DNA of 38,782 bases from a bacterium (GCA_016873475.1 VGXI01000008.1:1-38782), one strand, 5' to 3'. Numbered from the stretch's first letter, positions 7,463 through 16,744 are shown. Notes: generated by a model from the sequence alone, not told the origin. Translations and numbers: made by a program.

Positions 7463-8551
7463 ATGTCCGTGCCGCCGATCGCGATCAGGGCCGTCCACCA
7501 CGTGGAGATCTGGGCGGGCAACGCCAAGCAGGCTGCCTACTACTACCGCAAGGGCTTCGGCTTCAGCCAAATCGCCTACGCCGGCCTCGAGACCGGCCTC
7601 CAGGATCGCACCTCCTACTGCCTCGCCGAGGGCAAGGTCAGACTCGTGCTCAGTTCGCCCCTAGCGCCCGACGGCGTGATGGGCCAGTTCCTCGACCGCC
7701 ACGGCGACGGCGTGCGCGACATCGCCTTCCTCGTCGACGACGCCGACGCCGCCTTCGCGCTCGCCGTCGCGCGCGGCGCGGAGCCCCTGCAGGCGCCCAT
7801 CGACCGCAGCGACGAGCACGGCAGCGTTCGCCACGCCGCCATCCACACCTACGGCGACGTCGTGCACAGCTTCATCTCCTTGAAGGACTACCAGGGCTGC
7901 TTCCTGCCGGGCTATCGCGAGCAGCGCCTCGAGGAGGCGGGCTTCGGTTTCAAGCTGATCGACCACATCGTGGGCAATGTCGAAGAAGGCAAGATGGACT
8001 ACTGGCGCGAGTGGTACGAGCGCGTGCTCGGCTGGACGCAGTTCCTCTCCTTCGACGACAAGGACATCTCCACCGAGTTCACGGCGCTGCGCTCGAGGGT
8101 GATGGCGAGCCCGACGGCCAACATTCGCTTTCCGATCAACGAGCCGGCCAAGGGCCTCAAGAAGAGCCAGATCGACGAGTACCTCGAGTTCAACGGTGGG
8201 GCGGGCTCACAGCACATCGCGCTGCTCACGGGCGACATCATCGCGACGGTGAGCAAGCTGAAGGCGGCCGGCATCGACTTCTTGACGGTGCCGGGGAGCT
8301 ACTACGACGCCCTGCCGCAGCGGATCGGAGCGATCGACGAGGAGCTCAGCGTGCTCGCCAAGCTGGGCGTTCTCGTCGATCGCGATGACAAGGGCTACCT
8401 GCTGCAGCTCTTCACGAAGCCGGTCGAAGACCGGCCGACGCTCTTCATCGAGATCATCCAGCGCAAGGGCAGCAACAGCTTCGGCAAGGGCAACTTCCGG
8501 GCGCTCTTCGAGTCGATCGAGCGCGAGCAGGCCAAGCGCGGCACGCTCTAG
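7463..8551 (+). CDS. hppD: 4-hydroxyphenylpyruvate dioxygenase
   Basis: The 362-aa enzyme converts 4-hydroxyphenylpyruvate to homogentisate with loss of CO2, using Fe(II) and O2. It has two vicinal-oxygen-chelate domains. The N-terminal one begins AVHHVEIWAGNAKQAAYYY. The catalytic C-terminal one begins KLIDHIVGNVEEGKMDYW. The iron ligands are H168, H251 (GSQHIAL) and E330 (LFIEIIQR). Product-site features are also present, such as SFGKGNFRALFESIE near the end. GGGAG lies before ATG 7463. The next genes carry out later steps of tyrosine breakdown, so this is a genuine catabolic HPPD and not a hydroxymandelate synthase. Confidence 0.96.
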   Translation: MSVPPIAIRAVHHVEIWAGNAKQAAYYYRKGFGFSQIAYAGLETGLQDRTSYCLAEGKVRLVLSSPLAPDGVMGQFLDRHGDGVRDIAFLVDDADAAFALAVARGAEPLQAPIDRSDEHGSVRHAAIHTYGDVVHSFISLKDYQGCFLPGYREQRLEEAGFGFKLIDHIVGNVEEGKMDYWREWYERVLGWTQFLSFDDKDISTEFTALRSRVMASPTANIRFPINEPAKGLKKSQIDEYLEFNGGAGSQHIALLTGDIIATVSKLKAAGIDFLTVPGSYYDALPQRIGAIDEELSVLAKLGVLVDRDDKGYLLQLFTKPVEDRPTLFIEIIQRKGSNSFGKGNFRALFESIEREQAKRGTL

Positions 8552-8592
8552 CGGGCCCCGCGCGGGGGGCGACGAGGCAGGGAGGGCAGCCG

Positions 8593-9510
8593 ATGCGGCT
8601 CTTCAACTACGAGCGGAGCGGCGAAGCGCGCAGCGGCCTCTGGCTGAACGGGCGCGGCTACGATCTCGAGGCGCTGCTGGGCGAGGACTGCGGTGGCCCG
8701 CTCGGCCCGCGCAATCTCGGCAGCTTGCCGGCCTGGCAAGCCCGGCTGGCCGAGCGCGCGCCGACGGTCCCGCCCCTGCCCACGACGGGCTGGCGCTGGC
8801 TACCGCCGCTTCTGCCCGCGGCGAGCTTTCGCGACTTCTACGCCTTCGAGACGCACGTCCGGCAGGCCCGCGCGCGGCGCGGCCTCGAGGTGCCGGCGGC
8901 CTGGTACCGCTTCCCGGTCTTCTACTTCTCGAATCCGCACGCGCTCTTCGGCCACGAGGCGGAGATCCCCCTGCCGCCGGACGCCGCCGAGGAATGGCTG
9001 GACTTCGAGCTCGAGATCGGCGCCGTGCTCGGCGCCGGCGGGCGCGACCTGACGCCGGCCGCCGCCGAGGCGCTGATCGCCGGCTACTGCGTGCTCAACG
9101 ACTGGAGCGCGCGACGCGTGCAGCGCGACGAAATGAGCGTCGGCCTCGGTCCGGCCAAGGGCAAGGACTTCGCGACCTCGCTCGGGCCCTTCCTCGTCAC
9201 GCCGGACGAGCTGGCCGACCGCCGGCAAGGCAAGGGCTATGCGCTCACGATGGTCGCGCGCCGTGGCGGCCGCGAGCTGTGCCGCGCCAGCTGGGACAGC
9301 ATCCACTACTCCTTCGGCGAGATGATCAGCCGCGCCTCGCAGGGCGTCGATCTGCTGCCGGGCGAGCTCTTCGGCAGCGGCACCGTCGGCGGGGGCTGCA
9401 TCCTCGAGCTTGGCGAGGAAGCGGCCGGCGGCTGGCTGGCGCCCGGCGATCGCGTGGAGCTGGAGATCGAGCGCCTGGGCACCCTCACAGGGACGATCGC
9501 CGCGTCCTGA
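8593..9510 (+). CDS. Fumarylacetoacetate hydrolase-family protein
   Basis: The 305-aa protein starts MRLFNYERSGEARSGLWLNG and has the FAH core: FRDFYAFETHVRQARARRG, FYFSNPHALFG, a metal-binding WLDFELEIGAVLG, YCVLNDWSARRVQ, GPAKGKDFATSLGP and GTVGGGCILE. These carry the acidic metal ligands and the conserved Lys of the family. In this setting it probably cleaves fumarylacetoacetate to fumarate and acetoacetate, the last step of tyrosine degradation. The family is broad, and other beta-diketone substrates are possible. GGGAGGG lies just before ATG 8593. No maleylacetoacetate isomerase gene is seen nearby. Confidence 0.9.
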   Translation: MRLFNYERSGEARSGLWLNGRGYDLEALLGEDCGGPLGPRNLGSLPAWQARLAERAPTVPPLPTTGWRWLPPLLPAASFRDFYAFETHVRQARARRGLEVPAAWYRFPVFYFSNPHALFGHEAEIPLPPDAAEEWLDFELEIGAVLGAGGRDLTPAAAEALIAGYCVLNDWSARRVQRDEMSVGLGPAKGKDFATSLGPFLVTPDELADRRQGKGYALTMVARRGGRELCRASWDSIHYSFGEMISRASQGVDLLPGELFGSGTVGGGCILELGEEAAGGWLAPGDRVELEIERLGTLTGTIAAS

Positions 9511-9521
9511 ACCGCCGCCGG

Positions 9522-9550
9522 TTTACAAGCCGGGTCGATTCGGGCACACT
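9522..9550 (+). promoter_or_regulatory. Possible internal promoter before homogentisate dioxygenase
   Basis: TTTACA (9522-9527), a 17-base spacer and CACACT (9545-9550) precede ATG 9587 by 37 bases. The -35 box is good, the -10 box weak. Confidence 0.3.
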
Positions 9551-9586
9551 CTCCCCACTGCCCCCCTCTCAACCACGGAGATCGCC

Positions 9587-10738
9587 ATGCCCTTCTACCA
9601 CCGACTGGGGACGATCCCCCGCAAGCGCCACGTCGTCTTCAAGGGCGAGGGCGGCGCCTTCCACTACGAGCACCTGATGGGCAACAAGGGCTTCACGGGC
9701 CCCGCCTCGCTGATGTACCACCTGCGCCGGCCGACCTGCCTGCGCGAGGTGCGCCTGCGCGGGCCGCTCGTCTGGGAAGCCGATCCGGATCTGCGCCTGC
9801 GGCCGCGCCACCTGCGCCTGCACCGGCTGCCCGCAGGCGGCAGCCCGACGCTCGATCGCCGGCCCATCCTCTTCAATCGCGAGGTCGCCGTCTCCTTCGC
9901 GCAGCCGGATCGCCCCGACGAGCACTTCTATCGCAACGCCCAGGGCGACGAGCTGATCTTCATCGCCGAGGGCGGCGGCCGCCTCGAGTCGACGCTCGGC
10001 TCGCTGGCCCTGCGCGCGGGCGACTACGTGGTAATCCCGCGCGGCATCATCCACCGCTTCGCGCTCGAGGGCCCGGCGCGCCTTTTGATCATCGAGTCGG
10101 CGGGGGCGGTGGAGACACCCCACCGCTATCGCAACGAGTTTGGCCAGCTCCTCGAGCACAGCCCCTTCTGCGAGCGCGACGTTCGCGGTCCGGAGCGGCT
10201 GGACACGGTGGACGAGCCGGGCGAGTTCGTCGTCCTCACCAAGCAGTACAACGCGCTGCACGAGGTGGTGATGGCGCACCACCCCTTCGACGTCGTCGGC
10301 TGGGACGGCTACTACTTCCCCTGGGCTTTCAACATCGGCGACTTCGAGCCGATCGTCGGCAGCCTGCACCAGCCGCCGCCGGTGCACCAGACCTTCCAGG
10401 GCGATGGCTTCGTGATCTGCTCCTTCGTGTCGCGGCTCTACGACTTCCACCCCGCGGCCATTCCGGCGCCCTACAACCACAGCAACGCGATGTCCGACGA
10501 GGTGCTCTACTACGCGAAGTCCGAGTTCATGAGCCGCAAGGGCATCGAGTACGGCTCGCTGACCCTGCATCCCGATGGCATACCGCACGGCCCGCATCCC
10601 GGCACGATGGAGAAGTCGATCGGCGCCCAGCGCACGAAGGAGCTGGCCGTGATGCTGGACACCTTCCGTCCCCTGCGCGTCGCCAAGCCGGCGCTCGCCG
10701 TGGAGGATGCAGACTACCTCACGAGCTGGCTGGAGTAA
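9587..10738 (+). CDS. hmgA: Homogentisate 1,2-dioxygenase
   Basis: The 383-aa enzyme opens the aromatic ring of homogentisate to maleylacetoacetate. It begins MPFYHRLGTIPRKRHVVFKG. The cupin core includes GDELIFIAEGGG and GDYVVIPRGIIHRF. The C-terminal iron site follows: H298 in PYNHSNAMSDE, E305 and H334 in HPDGIPHGPHPG. It is shorter than the eukaryotic and proteobacterial enzymes (around 430-445 residues) and belongs to the compact bacterial branch. A CGGAG ribosome site precedes ATG 9587. It is five bases from the following flavin-reductase-like gene, so the two are co-translated. Confidence 0.94.
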   Translation: MPFYHRLGTIPRKRHVVFKGEGGAFHYEHLMGNKGFTGPASLMYHLRRPTCLREVRLRGPLVWEADPDLRLRPRHLRLHRLPAGGSPTLDRRPILFNREVAVSFAQPDRPDEHFYRNAQGDELIFIAEGGGRLESTLGSLALRAGDYVVIPRGIIHRFALEGPARLLIIESAGAVETPHRYRNEFGQLLEHSPFCERDVRGPERLDTVDEPGEFVVLTKQYNALHEVVMAHHPFDVVGWDGYYFPWAFNIGDFEPIVGSLHQPPPVHQTFQGDGFVICSFVSRLYDFHPAAIPAPYNHSNAMSDEVLYYAKSEFMSRKGIEYGSLTLHPDGIPHGPHPGTMEKSIGAQRTKELAVMLDTFRPLRVAKPALAVEDADYLTSWLE

Positions 10739-10743
10739 GCGCC

Positions 10744-11364
10744 ATGGTGGGTTTCGATCTGGGTGAGATGGACCGTCGCGACAGCTATCAGCTCCTCACG
10801 CGCATCGTCGGTCCGCGGCCCATCGCCTTCGTGAGCTGCCTCGACCCCGCCGGGCGCGGCAACCTGGCGCCCTTCTCCTACTTCAATCTGGGCGGCCTCA
10901 ACCCGCCCAGCCTCGTCTTCTGCGCGACGAACACGCGCGACGGCCGCGTCAAAGACACCGTGCGCAACGTCGAGACCACGGGCGAGTTCGTGGTCAACAT
11001 GGTGACGCGCGCGATGGCCGATCGCATGAACCAGGCCTCCTGGAGCTATCCGCCCGATGTGGACGAGTTCGACGCCGCCGGCTTCGCGCGCGCCGCCGCG
11101 CTGCGCGTGAAGCCGCCGCGCGTGGCCGAGAGCCCCGTGGCGATCGAGTGCCGCCTGCACCGCATCGTGCGCCATGGCGAGGGGCCGCTGGCGAGCAACT
11201 ACGTCATCGGGGAGGCGCTCTACGTGCACATCGCCGAGAGCGTGCTGGGGCCCGTGGGGCCGGATGCGCGCAAGCTCGATCTGATCGGGCGTCTGGGCGA
11301 TGACTGGTACGTGCACGTCGCGGGCGAGGCGCTCTTCGAGCTACCCCGCCCCACAGGCGGCTAG
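10744..11364 (+). CDS. Flavin reductase-like (FMN-binding split barrel) protein
   Basis: The 206-aa protein has the flavoredoxin/flavin-reductase pattern: YQLLTRIVGPRPIAFVSCLDPAGRGNLAPFSYFNLGGLNPPSLVFC and then KDTVRNVETTGEFVVNMVTR. These residues form the FMN-binding split barrel. Homologues are common beside aromatic-ring degradation genes. Their exact job there is not settled; reducing flavin or acting as a dehydrogenase on an intermediate have been suggested. It follows the homogentisate dioxygenase by five bases and ends the operon, 16 bases before the convergent membrane operon. Confidence 0.88.
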   Translation: MVGFDLGEMDRRDSYQLLTRIVGPRPIAFVSCLDPAGRGNLAPFSYFNLGGLNPPSLVFCATNTRDGRVKDTVRNVETTGEFVVNMVTRAMADRMNQASWSYPPDVDEFDAAGFARAAALRVKPPRVAESPVAIECRLHRIVRHGEGPLASNYVIGEALYVHIAESVLGPVGPDARKLDLIGRLGDDWYVHVAGEALFELPRPTGG

Positions 11365-11380: not shown

Positions 11381-12016
11381 CTAGAACAGGCTGCCCCAGA
11401 GCGAAACGAAGTAGTCCCGCATGAAGATGACCCGCTGGACGAGCAGGGCGACGCGACCCATCACGGTCAGGCCGAAGCCCGCGCCGAAGCCGATCATCAG
11501 CGTGTAGATGCCCGTGCGCGACATCACGCCCAGCACGCCGGTGTGCGGCCGCGAGAAGAAGAAGTAGGCGAGCGCGCAAACCACCCCGATCAGCGCCAGG
11601 GTGAAGTTCACGGCGGGCCAGAAGCCCGCCACCGGGCGGATCGTCCCCTCCACCTGCAGGAAGATCGCCGTCTTGAAGGCGAGCGGGATGAAGATGCCCG
11701 TCGAGATGCCCACGTAGAAGCCGAGCGCGTAGCGGCTCACCCAGCCCAGGCGGGGCGACAGGCGGAACCACATGAGGAGTCCCAGCAGCACCGGCACGAG
11801 GTAGTACCACTTCTGCTCGTAGACGATGGGGACGATCACCTTGTCGCGGAAACCCTGGTGATAGAGGAGCATCGTCCAGTAGCCGGTGGTCACGCCCACC
11901 CAGAGCCGCTCGGCAAACTTATAGAAGGGATTGTCCGCATAGAGGAAGGAGAACACGGCCAGCGTTAGGAAGACGGCCCCGCCTTGCCAGAGCAGCGTGC
12001 CCCAGTTCGCTTCCAC
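11381..12016 (-). CDS. Polytopic membrane protein, fourth gene of an unfamiliar membrane operon
   Basis: The 211-aa protein starts at GTG 12016 (VEANWGTLLWQGG), after a GGAGGG site and only two bases beyond the previous stop. Hydrophobic segments suggest five or six membrane helices: GAVFLTLAVFSFLYA, VGVTTGYWTMLLY, YYLVPVLLGLLMWF, LGFYVGISTGIFIPLAFKTAIF, AVNFTLALIGVVCALAYFFF and a Gly-rich GIYTLMIGFGAGFGLTVMGRVALL. I do not recognise the family. Tight spacing with the three upstream membrane genes argues that the products form one complex. Confidence 0.75.
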   Translation of the reverse strand: MEANWGTLLWQGGAVFLTLAVFSFLYADNPFYKFAERLWVGVTTGYWTMLLYHQGFRDKVIVPIVYEQKWYYLVPVLLGLLMWFRLSPRLGWVSRYALGFYVGISTGIFIPLAFKTAIFLQVEGTIRPVAGFWPAVNFTLALIGVVCALAYFFFSRPHTGVLGVMSRTGIYTLMIGFGAGFGLTVMGRVALLVQRVIFMRDYFVSLWGSLF

Positions 12017-12018
12017 GG

Positions 12019-12861
12019 CTACCGCCCTCCCGCGTGCGCGCGTCGCTGGGCGATGTAGCCCACGTTGGCGACGATCATGGCGATGATGATGAGCAGGTGG
12101 CTCGTCACCTGGTAGGGCATGCCGCGCGAGGCTTGGCCCGGCCGCTCGCGGAGGCTCTCGTACTCGGCGGCGCCCTTGACTCCCGGCAGCAGTCCGAAGA
12201 TCTGTCCCGACTGGAGATAGGGGTAGTAATCGGAGGCCATCACGCCGGTGACGCCCAAGGCCACCGGCACGCCGTACTTGGCATTGCCGTACTGGATCCA
12301 CATGTCGGCCACGTTGCCGCCCGCCAGCGAGACGACGCAGGCGACGTCGCTGAAGTTGTGGATGTCCTGCATCATCGGGATCGCGTCGACCGCGGTGCCA
12401 TAGTAGTCCGTCGGGAAGGGCACGCGGTAGTCGCTCCCCATGGCGAGAATCGTGATCGCCGGGTAGGGCTTGTAGCCGAGGAAGGCGTAGTGGACGTCGC
12501 GCTGCTTGCCGTGCTCCGTGGCGACACGCGTGACCAGCTCATCGACCATCGCCGGCCCGAACTGCGAGAGCGCCGTGATCACGAGGCGCAGGTCCTTGTC
12601 GAAGCACTGGTGGAGGATGGCTTCGGCCATGGGCTGAAGCTCGGCGAGCGTACTCGGATCGTAGTCGATGGCGAGATGGATGACCCCGCCCGCCGGCTGG
12701 GCTTCGATGGCCTCGTGCACGGCCCGCACCTCACCCGAGATGCCCACCGGCACCGTGAAGGGGCGCACCGCCGGCACGATGACCACCAGGGCCATCAGGA
12801 CGTAGATCCAGCGCCGATCGATATTGAGCAGCCGGTCGTACCAGGCCATGCCGTCTCTCAT
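12019..12861 (-). CDS. Membrane protein with a large soluble domain between two helices
   Basis: The 280-aa protein has one helix near the N-terminus (WIYVLMALVVIVPAVRPF), a soluble alpha/beta-looking domain of about 190 residues (GGVIHLAIDYDPSTLAELQP, DLRLVITALSQFGPAMVDEL) and a C-terminal helix (HLLIIIAMIVANVGYI). ATG 12861 lies nine bases after GAGGAG; GTG 12867 is an alternative. The end of its soluble domain (GVTGVMASDYYPYLQSGQ) resembles the matching part of the operon's first gene (FFVAATDYTLIGEELY), which hints at shared ancestry. No enzyme motif was recognised. Function unknown. Confidence 0.75.
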   Translation of the reverse strand: MRDGMAWYDRLLNIDRRWIYVLMALVVIVPAVRPFTVPVGISGEVRAVHEAIEAQPAGGVIHLAIDYDPSTLAELQPMAEAILHQCFDKDLRLVITALSQFGPAMVDELVTRVATEHGKQRDVHYAFLGYKPYPAITILAMGSDYRVPFPTDYYGTAVDAIPMMQDIHNFSDVACVVSLAGGNVADMWIQYGNAKYGVPVALGVTGVMASDYYPYLQSGQIFGLLPGVKGAAEYESLRERPGQASRGMPYQVTSHLLIIIAMIVANVGYIAQRRAHAGGR

Positions 12862-12889
12862 GCGCACACGCTCCTCGTCGCCGCAGGCC

Positions 12890-13513
12890 TCACTTGTCGC
12901 CTCCCATGTAGCCCCGCTCGATGCCGAGGATGATCTTCATGCTGTAGGAGATGGCGCCGAGGCCGACGCCGATGATGATCGCCCGCTTGGAGGCCATGTT
13001 CGGCACGGCCAGGATCCACTGCACGAGGCTGCTGTTCCAGCTCGAGAACGGCTCGGGCAAGGGCACGATGCGCAGCATCACGATGAAGGCCGTCACCAGG
13101 AGCACCGTGGCCAGCCAGGTGCGCACGCGGAAGGCGCGATAGGCGGCGCTGGCGATGTAGAAGGCCAGCATCGAGAAGATCGTCGCCTGGCAGGGGATCA
13201 TCACGTAGCTGAACAGGTTCTGGGCGAGGCTGTCCGGGCCGCTGTCGCGCCTGAAGTTGGCGATGGCCATCACCAGGAAGCCGACAATCGTGACGATCGC
13301 ATAGAAGCGCTCCCGCGGGTCCTTGCGCGCCTTGATCACCGTGCCCCGCATCAGCGAGAAGATGCCGAGCGGCAGCGCCAGGATGCCGATCACGATCACG
13401 AAGTCATTGGCGTAGGTGAAGAGGAACTCCGAGGCCGCATGGGGCACGAAGAACTGCAGCACCATGATGAGGCCCGTCACGAACACGATCAGGATGGGTA
13501 TCTGCTTCTTCAT
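12890..13513 (-). CDS. Polytopic membrane protein, second gene of the membrane operon
   Basis: The 207-aa protein begins MKKQIPILIVFVTGLIMVLQFFV and shows about six membrane segments: FVIVIGILALPLGIFSLM, FYAIVTIVGFLVMAIANF, FSYVMIPCQATIFSMLAFYIASAAY, WLATVLLVTAFIVMLRIV and AIIIGVGLGAISYSMKIILG. A basic loop (RGTVIKARKDPRERF) probably faces the cytoplasm. It starts six bases after the first gene's stop. No named family was recognised. Its position between two single-domain membrane proteins and another polytopic protein suggests a channel or scaffold subunit. Confidence 0.75.
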   Translation of the reverse strand: MKKQIPILIVFVTGLIMVLQFFVPHAASEFLFTYANDFVIVIGILALPLGIFSLMRGTVIKARKDPRERFYAIVTIVGFLVMAIANFRRDSGPDSLAQNLFSYVMIPCQATIFSMLAFYIASAAYRAFRVRTWLATVLLVTAFIVMLRIVPLPEPFSSWNSSLVQWILAVPNMASKRAIIIGVGLGAISYSMKIILGIERGYMGGDK

Positions 13514-13519
13514 GGCGCC

Positions 13520-14740
13520 TCAGACGGGTGTGCGCACGAGACGGAGGATGCCGTCCCAGTGCGCCAGGGTCAGGGCGAGAATTCCCGCAATGATGATCAG
13601 GATGATGGCGAGCTTGGCGTAGTCCTGCGCCTTGAGCGGACCGAGCTGGGCCGGCGCCCGCGAGAGATAGGCGCTGGCCGCGTAGAGCTCCTCCCCGATC
13701 AGGGTGTAGTCCGTGGCGGCGACGAAGAAGGGAATCTGCGAAACCTGATCGGTGCCGGAGATCTGGATCGCGCCCGTGCCGCTGCCCGTCTCGGCGAGGA
13801 GCAGGCTCTCGGCGTGGAAGATGCCCATGTAGAAGCAGGTCGCCGGTTTCTCGCGCCGCATGATGCCGTTGACCGCGGCGACGTAGGGGAACTGCATCGC
13901 GGACACGTAGCTGATGTTGTCGGCGCGATACACTTCCGGGCGCCCGGCCTGCGTGTAGGCTTCCTTGACCACCTCCTGGCCCATGGCCAGCATGACGGGG
14001 TCGTTGACGGGCACCAGGATCGGCGTCTGGTACTCCGCCGTGCGCCGGGCCACGCGCGACAGGATCGTGTACCCGGCAATGGTGGCCACGTCGCCGGCGG
14101 TGCCCGTGCCGAGCACGTAGAGGATCGGCGTGCCCATCTCGGTGGCGCGGCCGATCGCCTCGTCCACGGCGCCGAGGCCGGGGATCGGGCGGATGTAGAG
14201 CTCCTTGCCGCGCCGCGCCGAATTGATGAACCAGGCGACCGCGCCGCCGAAGAGCAATACGGCGACGAGGATGTTCGTCTTGCCGCGGTGGAACCAGTTG
14301 CCCTTGCCGACGCCGGTGGCCGCTCCACTCCAGGCGGTCAGGCGACCGTCGCCGCTGCGGCCGCGCACGCGCAGATGGATCGGCTCGCCGCTGGCCACGA
14401 AGGCGGGATTCGGCTGCCCTTGGGCGCTGGCGTCCTCGTCGAAGTAGACGAAGTGCTCGCTGCCGCGCGGGGCGCTGCCGACCTGGAACCAGACCGAGTC
14501 CGGCGCCGTGGGACTCGGCCCGCGCCAGATCTCGTAGACCAGGAGCTCGGCATCGTCCGGGGCGACGGACCAGCGCGCGAGCACGCCGTGGCCGTTGTCG
14601 TCGGGGCTGTCGCCGACGCGCAGTCCGGTCGGCGGGCTGAGCAGGGGCGCGACGACGAGCGTGGAGTCCTGGGCGATGGCGGCGATGGGGTGGGAGAGAG
14701 CGATGAGAAGCGGGGCGAGCGAGAGCAGTCGCTGGAGCAC
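13520..14740 (-). CDS. Exported fibronectin-III-like, two-helix membrane protein of unknown function (DUF6754-like?)
   Basis: From GTG 14740 the 406-aa product opens with a good signal peptide (LQRLLSLAPLLIALSHPIAAIAQ). A beta-rich domain like fibronectin III follows (PPTGLRVGDSPDDNGHGVLARWS, YEIWRG), then a helix (TNILVAVLLFGGAVAWFI). A probably cytoplasmic alpha/beta domain comes next (TPILYVLGTGTAGDVATIAGYTILS through PFFVAATDYTLIGEELY), with a last helix (LAIILIIIAGILALTL). ATG 14809 would add 23 residues, but it has no ribosome site and lies in the predicted -10 box. From memory it resembles proteins labelled DUF6754, which I cannot confirm here. First gene of a four-gene operon. Confidence 0.75.
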   Translation of the reverse strand: MLQRLLSLAPLLIALSHPIAAIAQDSTLVVAPLLSPPTGLRVGDSPDDNGHGVLARWSVAPDDAELLVYEIWRGPSPTAPDSVWFQVGSAPRGSEHFVYFDEDASAQGQPNPAFVASGEPIHLRVRGRSGDGRLTAWSGAATGVGKGNWFHRGKTNILVAVLLFGGAVAWFINSARRGKELYIRPIPGLGAVDEAIGRATEMGTPILYVLGTGTAGDVATIAGYTILSRVARRTAEYQTPILVPVNDPVMLAMGQEVVKEAYTQAGRPEVYRADNISYVSAMQFPYVAAVNGIMRREKPATCFYMGIFHAESLLLAETGSGTGAIQISGTDQVSQIPFFVAATDYTLIGEELYAASAYLSRAPAQLGPLKAQDYAKLAIILIIIAGILALTLAHWDGILRLVRTPV

Positions 14741-14804
14741 GAACCCTGCCTTTCGGCGCCGCCCGGGAGCCCGCAGGGCGCGGGCGGCAGCATCCCAGGC
14801 GCGG

Positions 14805-14834
14805 ATCATGGCAGGCTATCCGCATCGCTGACAA
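14805..14834 (-). promoter_or_regulatory. Candidate promoter of the four-gene membrane operon
   Basis: On the minus strand TTGTCA (14834-14829), 18 bases and CATGAT (14810-14805) precede the GTG at 14740. The -10 box covers the alternative ATG 14809, which favours the shorter protein. The -35 box lies just past the terminator of the preceding operon. Confidence 0.35.
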
Positions 14835-14836
14835 GG

Positions 14837-14866
14837 AAAAAGCGGCGCCCCCGGCGGGAGCGCCGC
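14837..14866 (-). terminator. Intrinsic terminator of the ECF sigma operon
   Basis: An 11-bp stem, GCGGCGCTCCC with GGGGGCGCCGC (one G-U pair), is followed on the minus strand by TTTTT. It lies 18 bases after the stop of the exported protein gene at 14885 and separates that operon from the membrane operon. Confidence 0.8.
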
Positions 14867-14884
14867 CTGCGGCAGCGCGCTGAC

Positions 14885-15661
14885 TCAGGGCAGCCGATAG
14901 CGCACCGTGAGCGGCAGGCGCTCGCCGGCCGCATAGTAGCGCCGCCAGAAAATCAGCGGCGCGCCCGCGTGCTCGGCCTGGAAGCTGGGCGCGGGCTCGA
15001 CGGCGACGACCGTCGCGCCGGCGGGCAAGCGCAGCGTGCGGCTGACCAGGCGGTCCTCCGGGTAGTCGCCCGCGAAGCTGTAGACCCACTCCGCGCCGTC
15101 CTGCCGCGCGACGGCCTCGTCCCGGTAGCCGACGCTCAGCGCGAGCGGCGCGCGCGGCGCCGCGGGCACGGCCAGCGCGATGACGACCTGCGTGCGGCCG
15201 CCCTGCGTCTCGAGGCGCGGCGTCAGCGCGTTGCCGAAGGCGTCGCGCACCTGCATGCGCGCCGTGCGCTCGCGCTCCCAGTCGGCGACGCCCCAGCTCA
15301 CCTGCGTCAGCAGCTCGCGGCCCTCGTTGCGCGCCTCGAGCGTGGACCAGGAGGTGGCGCCGCCCGCGCGGTCCACGTCGTCGACGACCTGGGTGACCCA
15401 CAGCGGCTGCTGCGCATCGTAGGCCGGCAGCACCGCACTGCCGTCCACGCTCGCGATCTGGCTCGCCGGCAGCTCGAGCATCACCGGCGCGCGACCCTCG
15501 CGGCCGTCGACCAGGTAGCGGCTCTCCTGCAAGGCGCGCAGGCGGCCCTCGATCACGCGGCCGTCCTTGAGGACGATCCGCGACGGGCTCGCGCTCGGCG
15601 CCCCGGCCCCGCCCGCGAGCAGCCACAGTCCCAGCAGCACGATCAGCGTGTTGCGCTTCAT
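14885..15661 (-). CDS. Exported protein of unknown function, target of the ECF operon
   Basis: The 258-aa protein starts MKRNTLIVLLGLWLLAGGAGAPS, a signal peptide. SRIVLKDGRVIEGRLRALQESRYLVDG follows, resembling the small beta motif found in many exported proteins of this type. The rest looks beta-rich, with QVSWGVADWERERTARMQVRDAFGN, VVIALAVPAAPRAPLALSVGYR and a C-terminal LPLTVRYRLP. The architecture suggests a surface or periplasmic stress protein; no catalytic motif was found. Its start overlaps the anti-sigma stop by four bases (ATGA), so the pair are co-translated. Confidence 0.75.
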   Translation of the reverse strand: MKRNTLIVLLGLWLLAGGAGAPSASPSRIVLKDGRVIEGRLRALQESRYLVDGREGRAPVMLELPASQIASVDGSAVLPAYDAQQPLWVTQVVDDVDRAGGATSWSTLEARNEGRELLTQVSWGVADWERERTARMQVRDAFGNALTPRLETQGGRTQVVIALAVPAAPRAPLALSVGYRDEAVARQDGAEWVYSFAGDYPEDRLVSRTLRLPAGATVVAVEPAPSFQAEHAGAPLIFWRRYYAAGERLPLTVRYRLP

Positions 15662-16134
15662 TGCTTTCCCCCTTCCGAGTCGCTGCGGGCCGGCGCGCAG
15701 CGCGCGCCCGGGCCCACGGTTAGCGTCAGTTCGCCGGCGCGGATCACGCCGAATTCTTCGAAGGCGCCGTCCAGGTAGGCCAGCACCGCCGCGCCGCGGC
15801 CGCCCTCACGCGCGTCGCCGCCGAGGCGGTCGCGCAAGCCGAGCGCGATGAGGACCAGCGCCGCCGCCACGAGCGCGGTCGCGCCCAGCGGCCGCCAGCG
15901 GCGAGCCGGCGCCGCGGACTCCGCGGCTGCGCTCAGGATCGCCGCACGCAGCGCGGCCGGCGGCTGCTGCGCCGCCAGTCCCTGCAGCGCCGTCCGCAGG
16001 CCTCGCCGCGCGACGACCGCCTCCGCGCAGTGCGGGCAGGCCGCGCGGTGCATCTCGCAGGCCGCCGCATCCGCGGCGGAGAGCTCGCCGTCGAGCCAGG
16101 CCTCGAGCTGCTGGGCGAAGTCCTCACAGCGCAT
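15658..16134 (-). CDS. Anti-sigma factor with zinc-finger domain and one membrane helix
   Basis: The 158-aa protein begins MRCEDFAQQLEAWLDGELSAADAAACEMHRAACPHC, the zf-HC2/ZAS signature with H29 and C33-x2-C36 as metal ligands. One membrane helix follows (LGATALVAAALVLIALGL), then a short outer domain of about 55 residues. Such proteins hold an ECF sigma factor at the membrane until a signal arrives. The gene overlaps the end of the sigma gene by 11 bases and the start of the exported protein gene by four. That order (sigma, anti-sigma, exported protein) is standard for an envelope-stress switch. Confidence 0.88.
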   Translation of the reverse strand: MRCEDFAQQLEAWLDGELSAADAAACEMHRAACPHCAEAVVARRGLRTALQGLAAQQPPAALRAAILSAAAESAAPARRWRPLGATALVAAALVLIALGLRDRLGGDAREGGRGAAVLAYLDGAFEEFGVIRAGELTLTVGPGARCAPARSDSEGGKQ

Positions 16135-16660
16135 GGCCGGACCTCCTCAGGTTCTCGCGCAGACGCGCGATCGCCTCGTGCTTGCGGGACGCCACGGTGC
16201 CGGACGGGATGTCCAGCACCGCGGCCACCGTGCGATAGGCCAGCCCCTCGACCTCGCTCAACAAGATTACGCTGCGCTGGGCCTCGGGCAGGGCGGCCAG
16301 GGCGGCCGCGAGCGCGCGGCGGAGCTCCCCCTGCTCGAGCGCCTGGGCCGGCGTGGGGCCGGGACTGGCCGCCGCGTCCGCGACCGCCGGCGCCGGATCG
16401 CGCCAGCGGGCCTCGCTGCGGCCACGCCGCCAGTCGCTCACGAGCAGGTTGCGGGCGATGCGAAAGACGAGGGCCTCGCCCGGCAGGTCGCCGCGACCCA
16501 GCGTGCGGTCCAGGCGCAGGAAGGTCTCCTGGCAGAGATCGCGCGCGCGCTCGGGGTCGCCGGTCTGGGCGCTGAGGAAGCGAAAGACGGCGGCGCCGTG
16601 GCGATCGTAGAGGGCGGCCAGCGCCGCCTGTCTCCTCTCGCCTCGCCCTCGCTCGTCCAT
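16124..16660 (-). CDS. ECF-type RNA polymerase sigma factor
   Basis: The 178-aa protein carries sigma region 2 (LYDRHGAAVFRFLSAQTGDPERARDLCQETFLRLDR, ALVFRIARNLLVSDWRR) and region 4 (ALAALPEAQRSVILLSEVEGLAYRTVAAVLDIPSGTVASRKHEAIARLR). An Ala/Pro linker joins them. Regions 1 and 3 are absent, as expected for ECF factors. ATG 16660 follows GGAGGTGAGG; an in-frame upstream ATG at 16735 lacks this support. It is held by the anti-sigma factor encoded next. The trigger is not evident. Confidence 0.92.
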   Translation of the reverse strand: MDERGRGERRQAALAALYDRHGAAVFRFLSAQTGDPERARDLCQETFLRLDRTLGRGDLPGEALVFRIARNLLVSDWRRGRSEARWRDPAPAVADAAASPGPTPAQALEQGELRRALAAALAALPEAQRSVILLSEVEGLAYRTVAAVLDIPSGTVASRKHEAIARLRENLRRSGHAL

Positions 16661-16744
16661 CGCCTCACCTCCTGTCGCGCCTTCAGCCCTGCAGACGCGC
16701 GAGGGCTTCGCTTCTTCACCGGAATCGGCGGGCATGGGAAAGCC

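What the first reader, a model, noticed from the sequence alone, without database searches (positions are those of the whole stretch)
11381..14834. Four-gene operon of unfamiliar membrane proteins with two related soluble domains
An exported FN3-like two-helix protein, two polytopic proteins and a second protein with a soluble domain between two helices are packed with gaps of 2 to 28 bases. The soluble domains of the first and third products end in a similar A(T/S)DY region followed directly by a membrane helix, which suggests paralogous subunits. Together they look like one membrane complex. No transport or enzyme family was recognised.
Basis: partly seen in the sequence, partly recalled or inferred. 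Interest (0 to 1): 0.65.

Follow-up and report, generated by a model that had tools for sequence, protein, structure and literature searches.

The report
Unstudied membrane complex with ATPase partner
Four neighbouring genes encode the membrane part of a conserved but undescribed bacterial machine that, in several phyla, is inherited together with an ATP-binding protein and a helper protein, and that every one of 119 sampled genomes of one whole phylum carries.

Summary
The four-gene operon is real (minus strand, gaps of 6, 22 and 2 bases). A (14740-13520): signal peptide, FN3-fold domain, helix, DUF6754, helix. B: about six helices. C: soluble alpha/beta domain between two helices. D: about five helices. 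Only A has a Pfam family; B, C and D have none.

The genes travel together: 102 of 123 A genes are followed directly by B-C-D, and nearly all exceptions are contig ends or gene-calling misses.

The 'A(T/S)DY' motif lies 30-40 residues before the helix and is not conserved in C. Profiles do not match (probability below 1%). Charge bias puts the two soluble domains on opposite sides of the membrane.

In Nitrospirota, Planctomycetota and other phyla the operon is S-M-K-A-B-C-D. M is a GlmL/MutL-like ATPase and K a barrel/KOW-like protein. A and M co-occur almost perfectly: 46 of 46 in Nitrospirota, 57 of 62 in Planctomycetota, even where the genes are scattered. All 119 sampled Zixibacteria carry A, usually in several copies.

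I read it as an undescribed ATPase-linked inner-membrane machine. What it moves or acts on is unknown.

The parts
13520..14740 (-). Gene A (406 aa, GTG start; alternative ATG at 14809 gives 429 aa): signal peptide, FN3-fold domain, TM, DUF6754, TM
14300..14641 (-). FN3-fold extracytoplasmic domain of A (about residues 34-147)
   Evidence: AlphaFold strands 38-144; Foldseek FN3 matches, TMt up to 0.82; absent in the second operon of the same genome
13562..14305 (-). DUF6754 (PF20539) with its two flanking helices; soluble part predicted cytoplasmic
   Evidence: E 2e-112; K+R bias
12890..13513 (-). Gene B (207 aa), about six TM helices, N-in/C-in by charge; invariant L116, S122, A123, F128; R126, R129 and R177 almost invariant
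   Evidence: no Pfam/NCBIfam/PDB match
12019..12867 (-). Gene C (282 aa from GTG 12867 with GAGGAG site; 276 aa from ATG 12849): TM, Rossmann-like alpha/beta domain, TM; soluble part predicted extracytoplasmic
   Evidence: no Pfam/NCBIfam/PDB sequence match
11381..12016 (-). Gene D (211 aa), about five TM helices; invariant N29, E36, G41, G103, Q121, Y151, F152
   Evidence: no match
14840..14868 (-). terminator-like hairpin with T tract between the upstream gene (14885..15661) and A: the operon starts after it
   Evidence: shuffles of the region give 1.0 +/- 1.0 such sites, so the pattern alone is not significant

Best explanation
A-B-C-D is the membrane sector of a conserved multi-protein machine in the inner membrane of diderm bacteria. 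SHOWN by comparison: A, B, C, D are one inherited unit, often duplicated as a block; in many lineages they form one operon with S (short hydrophobic protein), M (ASKHA-type ATPase, GlmL-like MutL family) and K (barrel-sandwich plus KOW-like protein); A and M genes are gained and lost together. INFERRED: A carries its FN3 domain outside and DUF6754 in the cytoplasm; C carries a Rossmann-like domain outside; B and D form the membrane core with conserved Arg/Glu/Gln; M, through K and S, docks on the cytoplasmic side and uses ATP binding or hydrolysis to assemble, reset or drive the complex. What is moved, sensed or made is not known. I favour ATP-dependent conformational driving or reactivation of a transport or energy-transducing membrane complex. 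In the window's family the unit exists as three paralogous operons; the window holds one of them. Confidence split: one conserved complex 0.95; M and K are functional partners 0.9; ATP-driven membrane machine as described about 0.45.
For: Linkage: 102 of 123 A directly followed by B-C-D, most others contig ends or missed calls; 170 A genes in the wider set with order tally; median gaps 9.5, 2 and 3 bases. Tandem ABCD x2-3 blocks, whose positions 1/2/3 in Zixibacteria form separate clades in positional order. Extended order S-M-K-A-B-C-D in planctomycetes and in ten Nitrospirota genomes. Co-occurrence of DUF6754 and MutL: Nitrospirota 46 both, 0 either alone, 152 neither; Planctomycetota 57/5/9/175, Fisher 5e-40; window's phylum all 6 MutL genomes among the 16 with DUF6754; 28 of 30 carriers from many phyla have MutL. 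Scattered but all retained in G133, G214, G246. M keeps conserved ATP-site motifs (ATDCGSTTTKAILI, GVDIGGATTD, GSGG.LSHAP). Fusions M-K in seven fetched loci (six of them checked for N gaps, none) and S-M in one (no N gap). Topology from charge bias.
Against: No biochemical evidence. The window operon has no S, M or K next to it; in this genome M and K lie on another contig (C89) where K is cut by the contig end. Ten of 16 DUF6754 genomes of the window's phylum have no detected MutL, so M is not strictly required there. The co-occurrence tests ignore shared ancestry (Nitrospirota carriers may be one clade). A few lone A genes exist (L027, L055, L069, second A of L066). The MutL family is better known from cytoplasmic cobalamin enzymes, so its role here could be chaperone-like. 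AlphaFold models rest on 15-18 sequences and no complex could be modelled.
Confidence: 0.5

Rival explanations
1. M and K are a reactivase or chaperone pair, as proposed for GlmL-type proteins with cobalamin mutases, and A-D is an unrelated or indirectly linked membrane complex (for example corrinoid or substrate uptake) serving a B12 enzyme.
For: M belongs to Pfam MutL; true GlmL-like protein next to methylaspartate mutase subunit S exists in the same phylum (L162).
Against: M scores far below the GlmL cut-offs (218 of 475 and 150 of 204 bits) and forms its own score class (845-1140 bits against 115-134 for GlmL-like). Of 2308 proteins in the fetched loci only 3 show a B12-binding motif, one of them the GlmS control. 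M, K and A share one operon in order.
Confidence: 0.15
2. A-D is a membrane-embedded enzyme complex: the two Rossmann-like domains bind nucleotide or substrate on either side of the membrane and M/K are its assembly factors.
For: Invariant acidic residues E311, E317, D344, E350, E351 and D373 in A, and E231 in C; Foldseek matches of C are Rossmann enzymes and Moco carrier/LOG-like proteins.
Against: No match to C reaches E 0.001 and TM-scores are low; no known active-site motif was recognised; neighbouring metabolic genes differ between lineages.
Confidence: 0.2
3. A-D is a structural envelope scaffold and M an actin-like filament or clamp organising it, as PilM and FtsA work with membrane partners.
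For: FN3 domain outside on most A proteins; M has the ASKHA fold class; universal and multi-copy in sampled Zixibacteria.
Against: M resembles GlmL rather than FtsA/PilM; B and D have many conserved charged or polar residues in or near helices, more than a scaffold needs; the FN3 domain is missing in some operons.
Confidence: 0.15

Closest known systems
DUF6754 (Pfam PF20539)
   Same: A carries the whole domain (profile positions 2-249 of 257, E 2e-112).
   Different: Pfam gives no function and describes neither the B-C-D partners nor M/K/S; no paper in the library mentions DUF6754 or PF20539.
GlmL / MutL family (PF13941; NF040745, NF040744, TIGR01319)
   Same: M is a MutL-family ASKHA ATPase with conserved ATP-site motifs.
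   Different: M is about 600-640 aa, below all GlmL-type cut-offs, a separate score class, and tied to a membrane complex instead of a cobalamin mutase.
ASKHA ATPases with membrane partners (PilM-PilNOP, FtsA)
   Same: Works-like analogy only: a cytoplasmic actin-like ATPase attached to an inner-membrane complex (from general knowledge).
   Different: No sequence relation tested or seen; partners have different architecture.

Membership tests
DUF6754 (PF20539) | score above Pfam gathering threshold over the whole domain | tested here: met
   375 bits against cut-off 27
Fibronectin type III fold (A N-terminal domain) | seven-strand beta sandwich matching solved FN3 domains | tested here: met
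   Foldseek E down to 7e-6; 1k85 TMt 0.82
Fibronectin type III fold (A N-terminal domain) | Pfam FN3 sequence match | tested here: not met
   no FN3 family at E <= 1
A and C as paralogues | profile-profile similarity of the soluble domains | tested here: not met
   hhalign probability below 1% with 18/15 and with 123/108 sequences
A and C as paralogues | same fold | tested here: inconclusive
   both models read helix then six strand-helix units between two TM helices; the two models could not be superposed here
MutL family (PF13941), gene M of related loci | score above Pfam threshold | tested here: met
   425 bits against 27
GlmL (methylaspartate mutase accessory protein) | score above NCBIfam equivalog/subfamily cut-offs | tested here: not met
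   218 of 475, 201 of 600, 150 of 204 bits
GlmL (methylaspartate mutase accessory protein) | gene next to a cobalamin mutase | tested here: not met
   no B12-binding mutase motif beside S-M-K-A-B-C-D loci; present beside the GlmL-like control L162
Known transporters or pumps | B or D matching a Pfam/NCBIfam/PDB family | tested here: not met
   no significant match
Anti-phage defence systems | match to PADLOC models | tested here: not met
   no match for A, B, C, D, M, K
ATP-driven membrane complex | ATP hydrolysis by M coupled to A-D | not testable with these tools
   needs biochemistry

The most novel reading that the evidence does not exclude
A new kind of ATP-powered inner-membrane machine, S-M-K-(A-B-C-D)n, in which a GlmL-related ASKHA ATPase drives or resets a four-subunit membrane sector with sensor or catalytic domains on both faces, present as one to several paralogous sectors per cell and shared by Zixibacteria, WOR-3, Planctomycetota, Nitrospirota, Eisenbacteria and other phyla.
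Probability: 0.4. Interest if true: 0.88.

Novelty: categorically new. Interest (0 to 1): 0.72.

Why it matters
A seven-gene system that is universal in the sampled genomes of one phylum, in perfect step with its ATPase in another, and held in complete genomes of Nitrospirota and Planctomycetota, is probably doing something basic in the cell envelope, yet three of its four membrane subunits have no named family and no paper was found. It also gives the MutL/GlmL family, so far tied to B12 enzymes, a second and much wider context that can be tested.

Tried and rejected
Paralogy of A and C from the A(T/S)DY motif: rejected. Apparent fusion of A with an S49 peptidase in L181: rejected, the join is a 100-N scaffold gap. 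MutL-only genomes as counter-examples: two of those looked at (G305, G343) hold ordinary GlmL-type proteins, G343's beside methylaspartate mutase subunit S, and G162 and G176 hold S-M (or S-M-K) near a contig end or without A; the rest were not resolved. ECF sigma / anti-sigma genes upstream as part of the operon: not supported, a terminator-like hairpin lies between them. Acyl-CoA dehydrogenase, glycine-cleavage, PPDK, efp-accBC and HisC neighbours: lineage-specific. B12-mutase link: no motif. Foldseek of A is dominated by the FN3 part, so DUF6754 itself remains without a fold assignment. Literature: nothing on DUF6754, PF20539 or PF13941.

Full report
WHAT IS IN THE WINDOW. The four genes lie on the minus strand: A 14740..13520 (or from ATG 14809), B 13513..12890, C 12867 (or 12849)..12019, D 12016..11381. 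Gaps are 6, 22 and 2 bases. The GTG at 14740 is the likelier start of A: it has a ribosome-site-like AAAGGCAGGG upstream and begins a classical signal peptide, whereas ATG 14809 has none. A terminator-like hairpin followed by T's at 14868-14840 separates A from an upstream gene, anti-sigma (zf-HC2) gene and ECF sigma gene on the same strand. Downstream, a convergent flavin reductase gene ends at 11364. Against the relative L044 all four genes show dN near 0.21-0.23 and dS 0.55-0.77, so they are kept as proteins.

WHAT THE PROTEINS ARE. A is DUF6754 (PF20539, E 2e-112), with no function assigned. Its AlphaFold model has an all-strand N-terminal domain that Foldseek matches to FN3 domains (target TM-scores up to 0.82), then helix, alpha/beta domain, helix. 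B, C and D have no Pfam, NCBIfam, PADLOC or PDB sequence match. C models as a Rossmann-like alpha/beta domain between two helices (mean pLDDT 87); its best structural matches are generic Rossmann proteins, none with E at or below 0.001. All four are highly conserved in 103-123 relatives, including E311, E317, D344, E350, E351 and D373 in A, S122 with near-invariant R126 and R177 in B, Q216 and E231 in C, N29, E36 and Q121 in D.

The letters ATDY (A) and ASDY (C) are present, but about 30 and 40 residues before the helices. D344 of A is invariant (123 of 123); the matching residue of C is D in 30 of 108. Profile comparison gives probability below 1% with small and large alignments. Averaged over the families, Lys+Arg counts beside the helices put A's soluble domain in the cytoplasm (4.4 after helix 1 and 2.3 before helix 2, against 1.6 and 0.7 on the far sides) and C's outside (3.2 and 3.8 on the far sides, against 1.5 and 1.4). 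The one point left for a common origin is the same order of strands and helices in the two models, which is weak because Rossmann-like folds are common.

THE FOUR TRAVEL TOGETHER. The genome has a second ABCD operon on contig C10, without FN3. Among 123 A genes from the window's phylum and from Zixibacteria, WOR-3/Stahlbacteria, Fermentibacteria, Poribacteria, Latescibacteria, Cloacimonadota, Planctomycetota and Nitrospirota, 102 are followed directly by B, C and D; most others are contig ends or missed gene calls. True lone A genes are few (L027, L055, L069, second A of L066). Many genomes carry two or three ABCD blocks head to tail. In a tree of A, blocks 1, 2 and 3 of Zixibacteria arrays form three separate clades, so the arrays are old and position-specific; the window's A falls with block 3. 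The window's family holds three paralogous operons: the window type, a type beside hisC without FN3, and a type linked to M.

THE LARGER SYSTEM. Upstream of A many loci carry K (about 375 aa, barrel-sandwich/KOW-like by my reading; weak Biotin_lipoyl match below threshold), M (MutL, PF13941, E 4e-127), S (100-150 aa, motif like VPAxxFLExxKPLxFLG) and sometimes T. In planctomycetes and in ten Nitrospirota genomes, several of them on single chromosome-sized contigs, the order is S-M-K-A-B-C-D. A and M co-occur: Nitrospirota 46 with both, none with one, 152 with neither; Planctomycetota 57 both, 5 only A, 9 only M, 175 neither; window's phylum 6 M genomes, all within the 16 A genomes; 28 of 30 A carriers from other phyla have M. 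In G133, G214 and G246 the operon is broken up: K-A is in one place (M-K-A in G214), D lies elsewhere, and M is separate in G133 and G246, yet all are kept. All 119 sampled genomes of the Zixibacteria phylum have DUF6754, mostly 3-6 copies. The window's genome has M and K on contig C89, with K cut by the contig end, so a third operon is probably lost in an assembly gap.

M IS NOT GlmL. Operon M proteins score 845-1140 bits on their own profile, a class of M-K fusion proteins 460-486, and ordinary GlmL-like proteins (one of them beside methylaspartate mutase subunit S) 115-134. Operon M falls below every GlmL-type cut-off. Its ATP-site motifs are conserved. Only 3 of 2308 proteins in the fetched loci have a B12-binding motif, one being the GlmS control.

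HOW IT MOST LIKELY WORKS. Shown by comparison: one inherited ABCD unit; linkage and co-inheritance with M, K and S. Inferred: B and D form the membrane core, A presents DUF6754 to the cytoplasm and FN3 to the outside, C presents a Rossmann-like domain outside, and M, through K and S, uses ATP to assemble, reset or drive the complex. The cargo or reaction is unknown. I give 0.95 to 'one complex', 0.9 to 'M and K are partners', about 0.45 to the ATP-driven mechanism.

LIMITS. The co-occurrence tests do not correct for ancestry. Gene calls are from a simple script of mine and miss genes in some AT-rich loci; misses were rechecked in six frames. Structure models use shallow alignments; no multimer could be run. 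The literature library is open-access only.

Noticed in passing
L151:8878-11409, L152:3923-6898, L154:5002-7875, L155, L156, L157, L158: A separate class of proteins of about 820-990 aa fuses a MutL-type ATPase to a K-like domain and is not next to ABCD; it may be a one-gene relative of the M-K pair.
   Followed up: partly
L047, L050, L059, L076, L079, L091, L094, L184: Three ABCD blocks in tandem in Zixibacteria; block positions 1, 2, 3 are old separate clades, suggesting three specialised or co-assembling sectors.
   Followed up: partly
L165 (G000:C89:1-2439): The window's own genome has M and K at a contig end, K truncated; a third ABCD operon is probably lost in the assembly gap.
   Followed up: yes
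L181:8321-10708: Apparent fusion of DUF6754 with a signal-peptide peptidase (S49) is an artefact of 100 N's in the scaffold.
   Followed up: yes
L171:5246-6487, L175:12476-13738: In Nitrospirota the gene after D encodes a Memo-like protein (PF01875 in L171; similar sequence in L175); possible extra partner or mere neighbour.
   Followed up: no
window 7463-11364 (+): Compact tyrosine-degradation-like cluster: glyoxalase/HPPD-like, FAA hydrolase, homogentisate dioxygenase-like cupin, flavin reductase.
   Followed up: partly
window 14885-16735 (-): ECF sigma factor, zf-HC2 anti-sigma-like protein and an exported protein without a family form a small operon just upstream of A, ending in a terminator-like hairpin.
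   Followed up: partly
L029:11130-13157: S and M are fused in one 675-aa open frame (no N's), one more sign that S works with M.
   Followed up: yes
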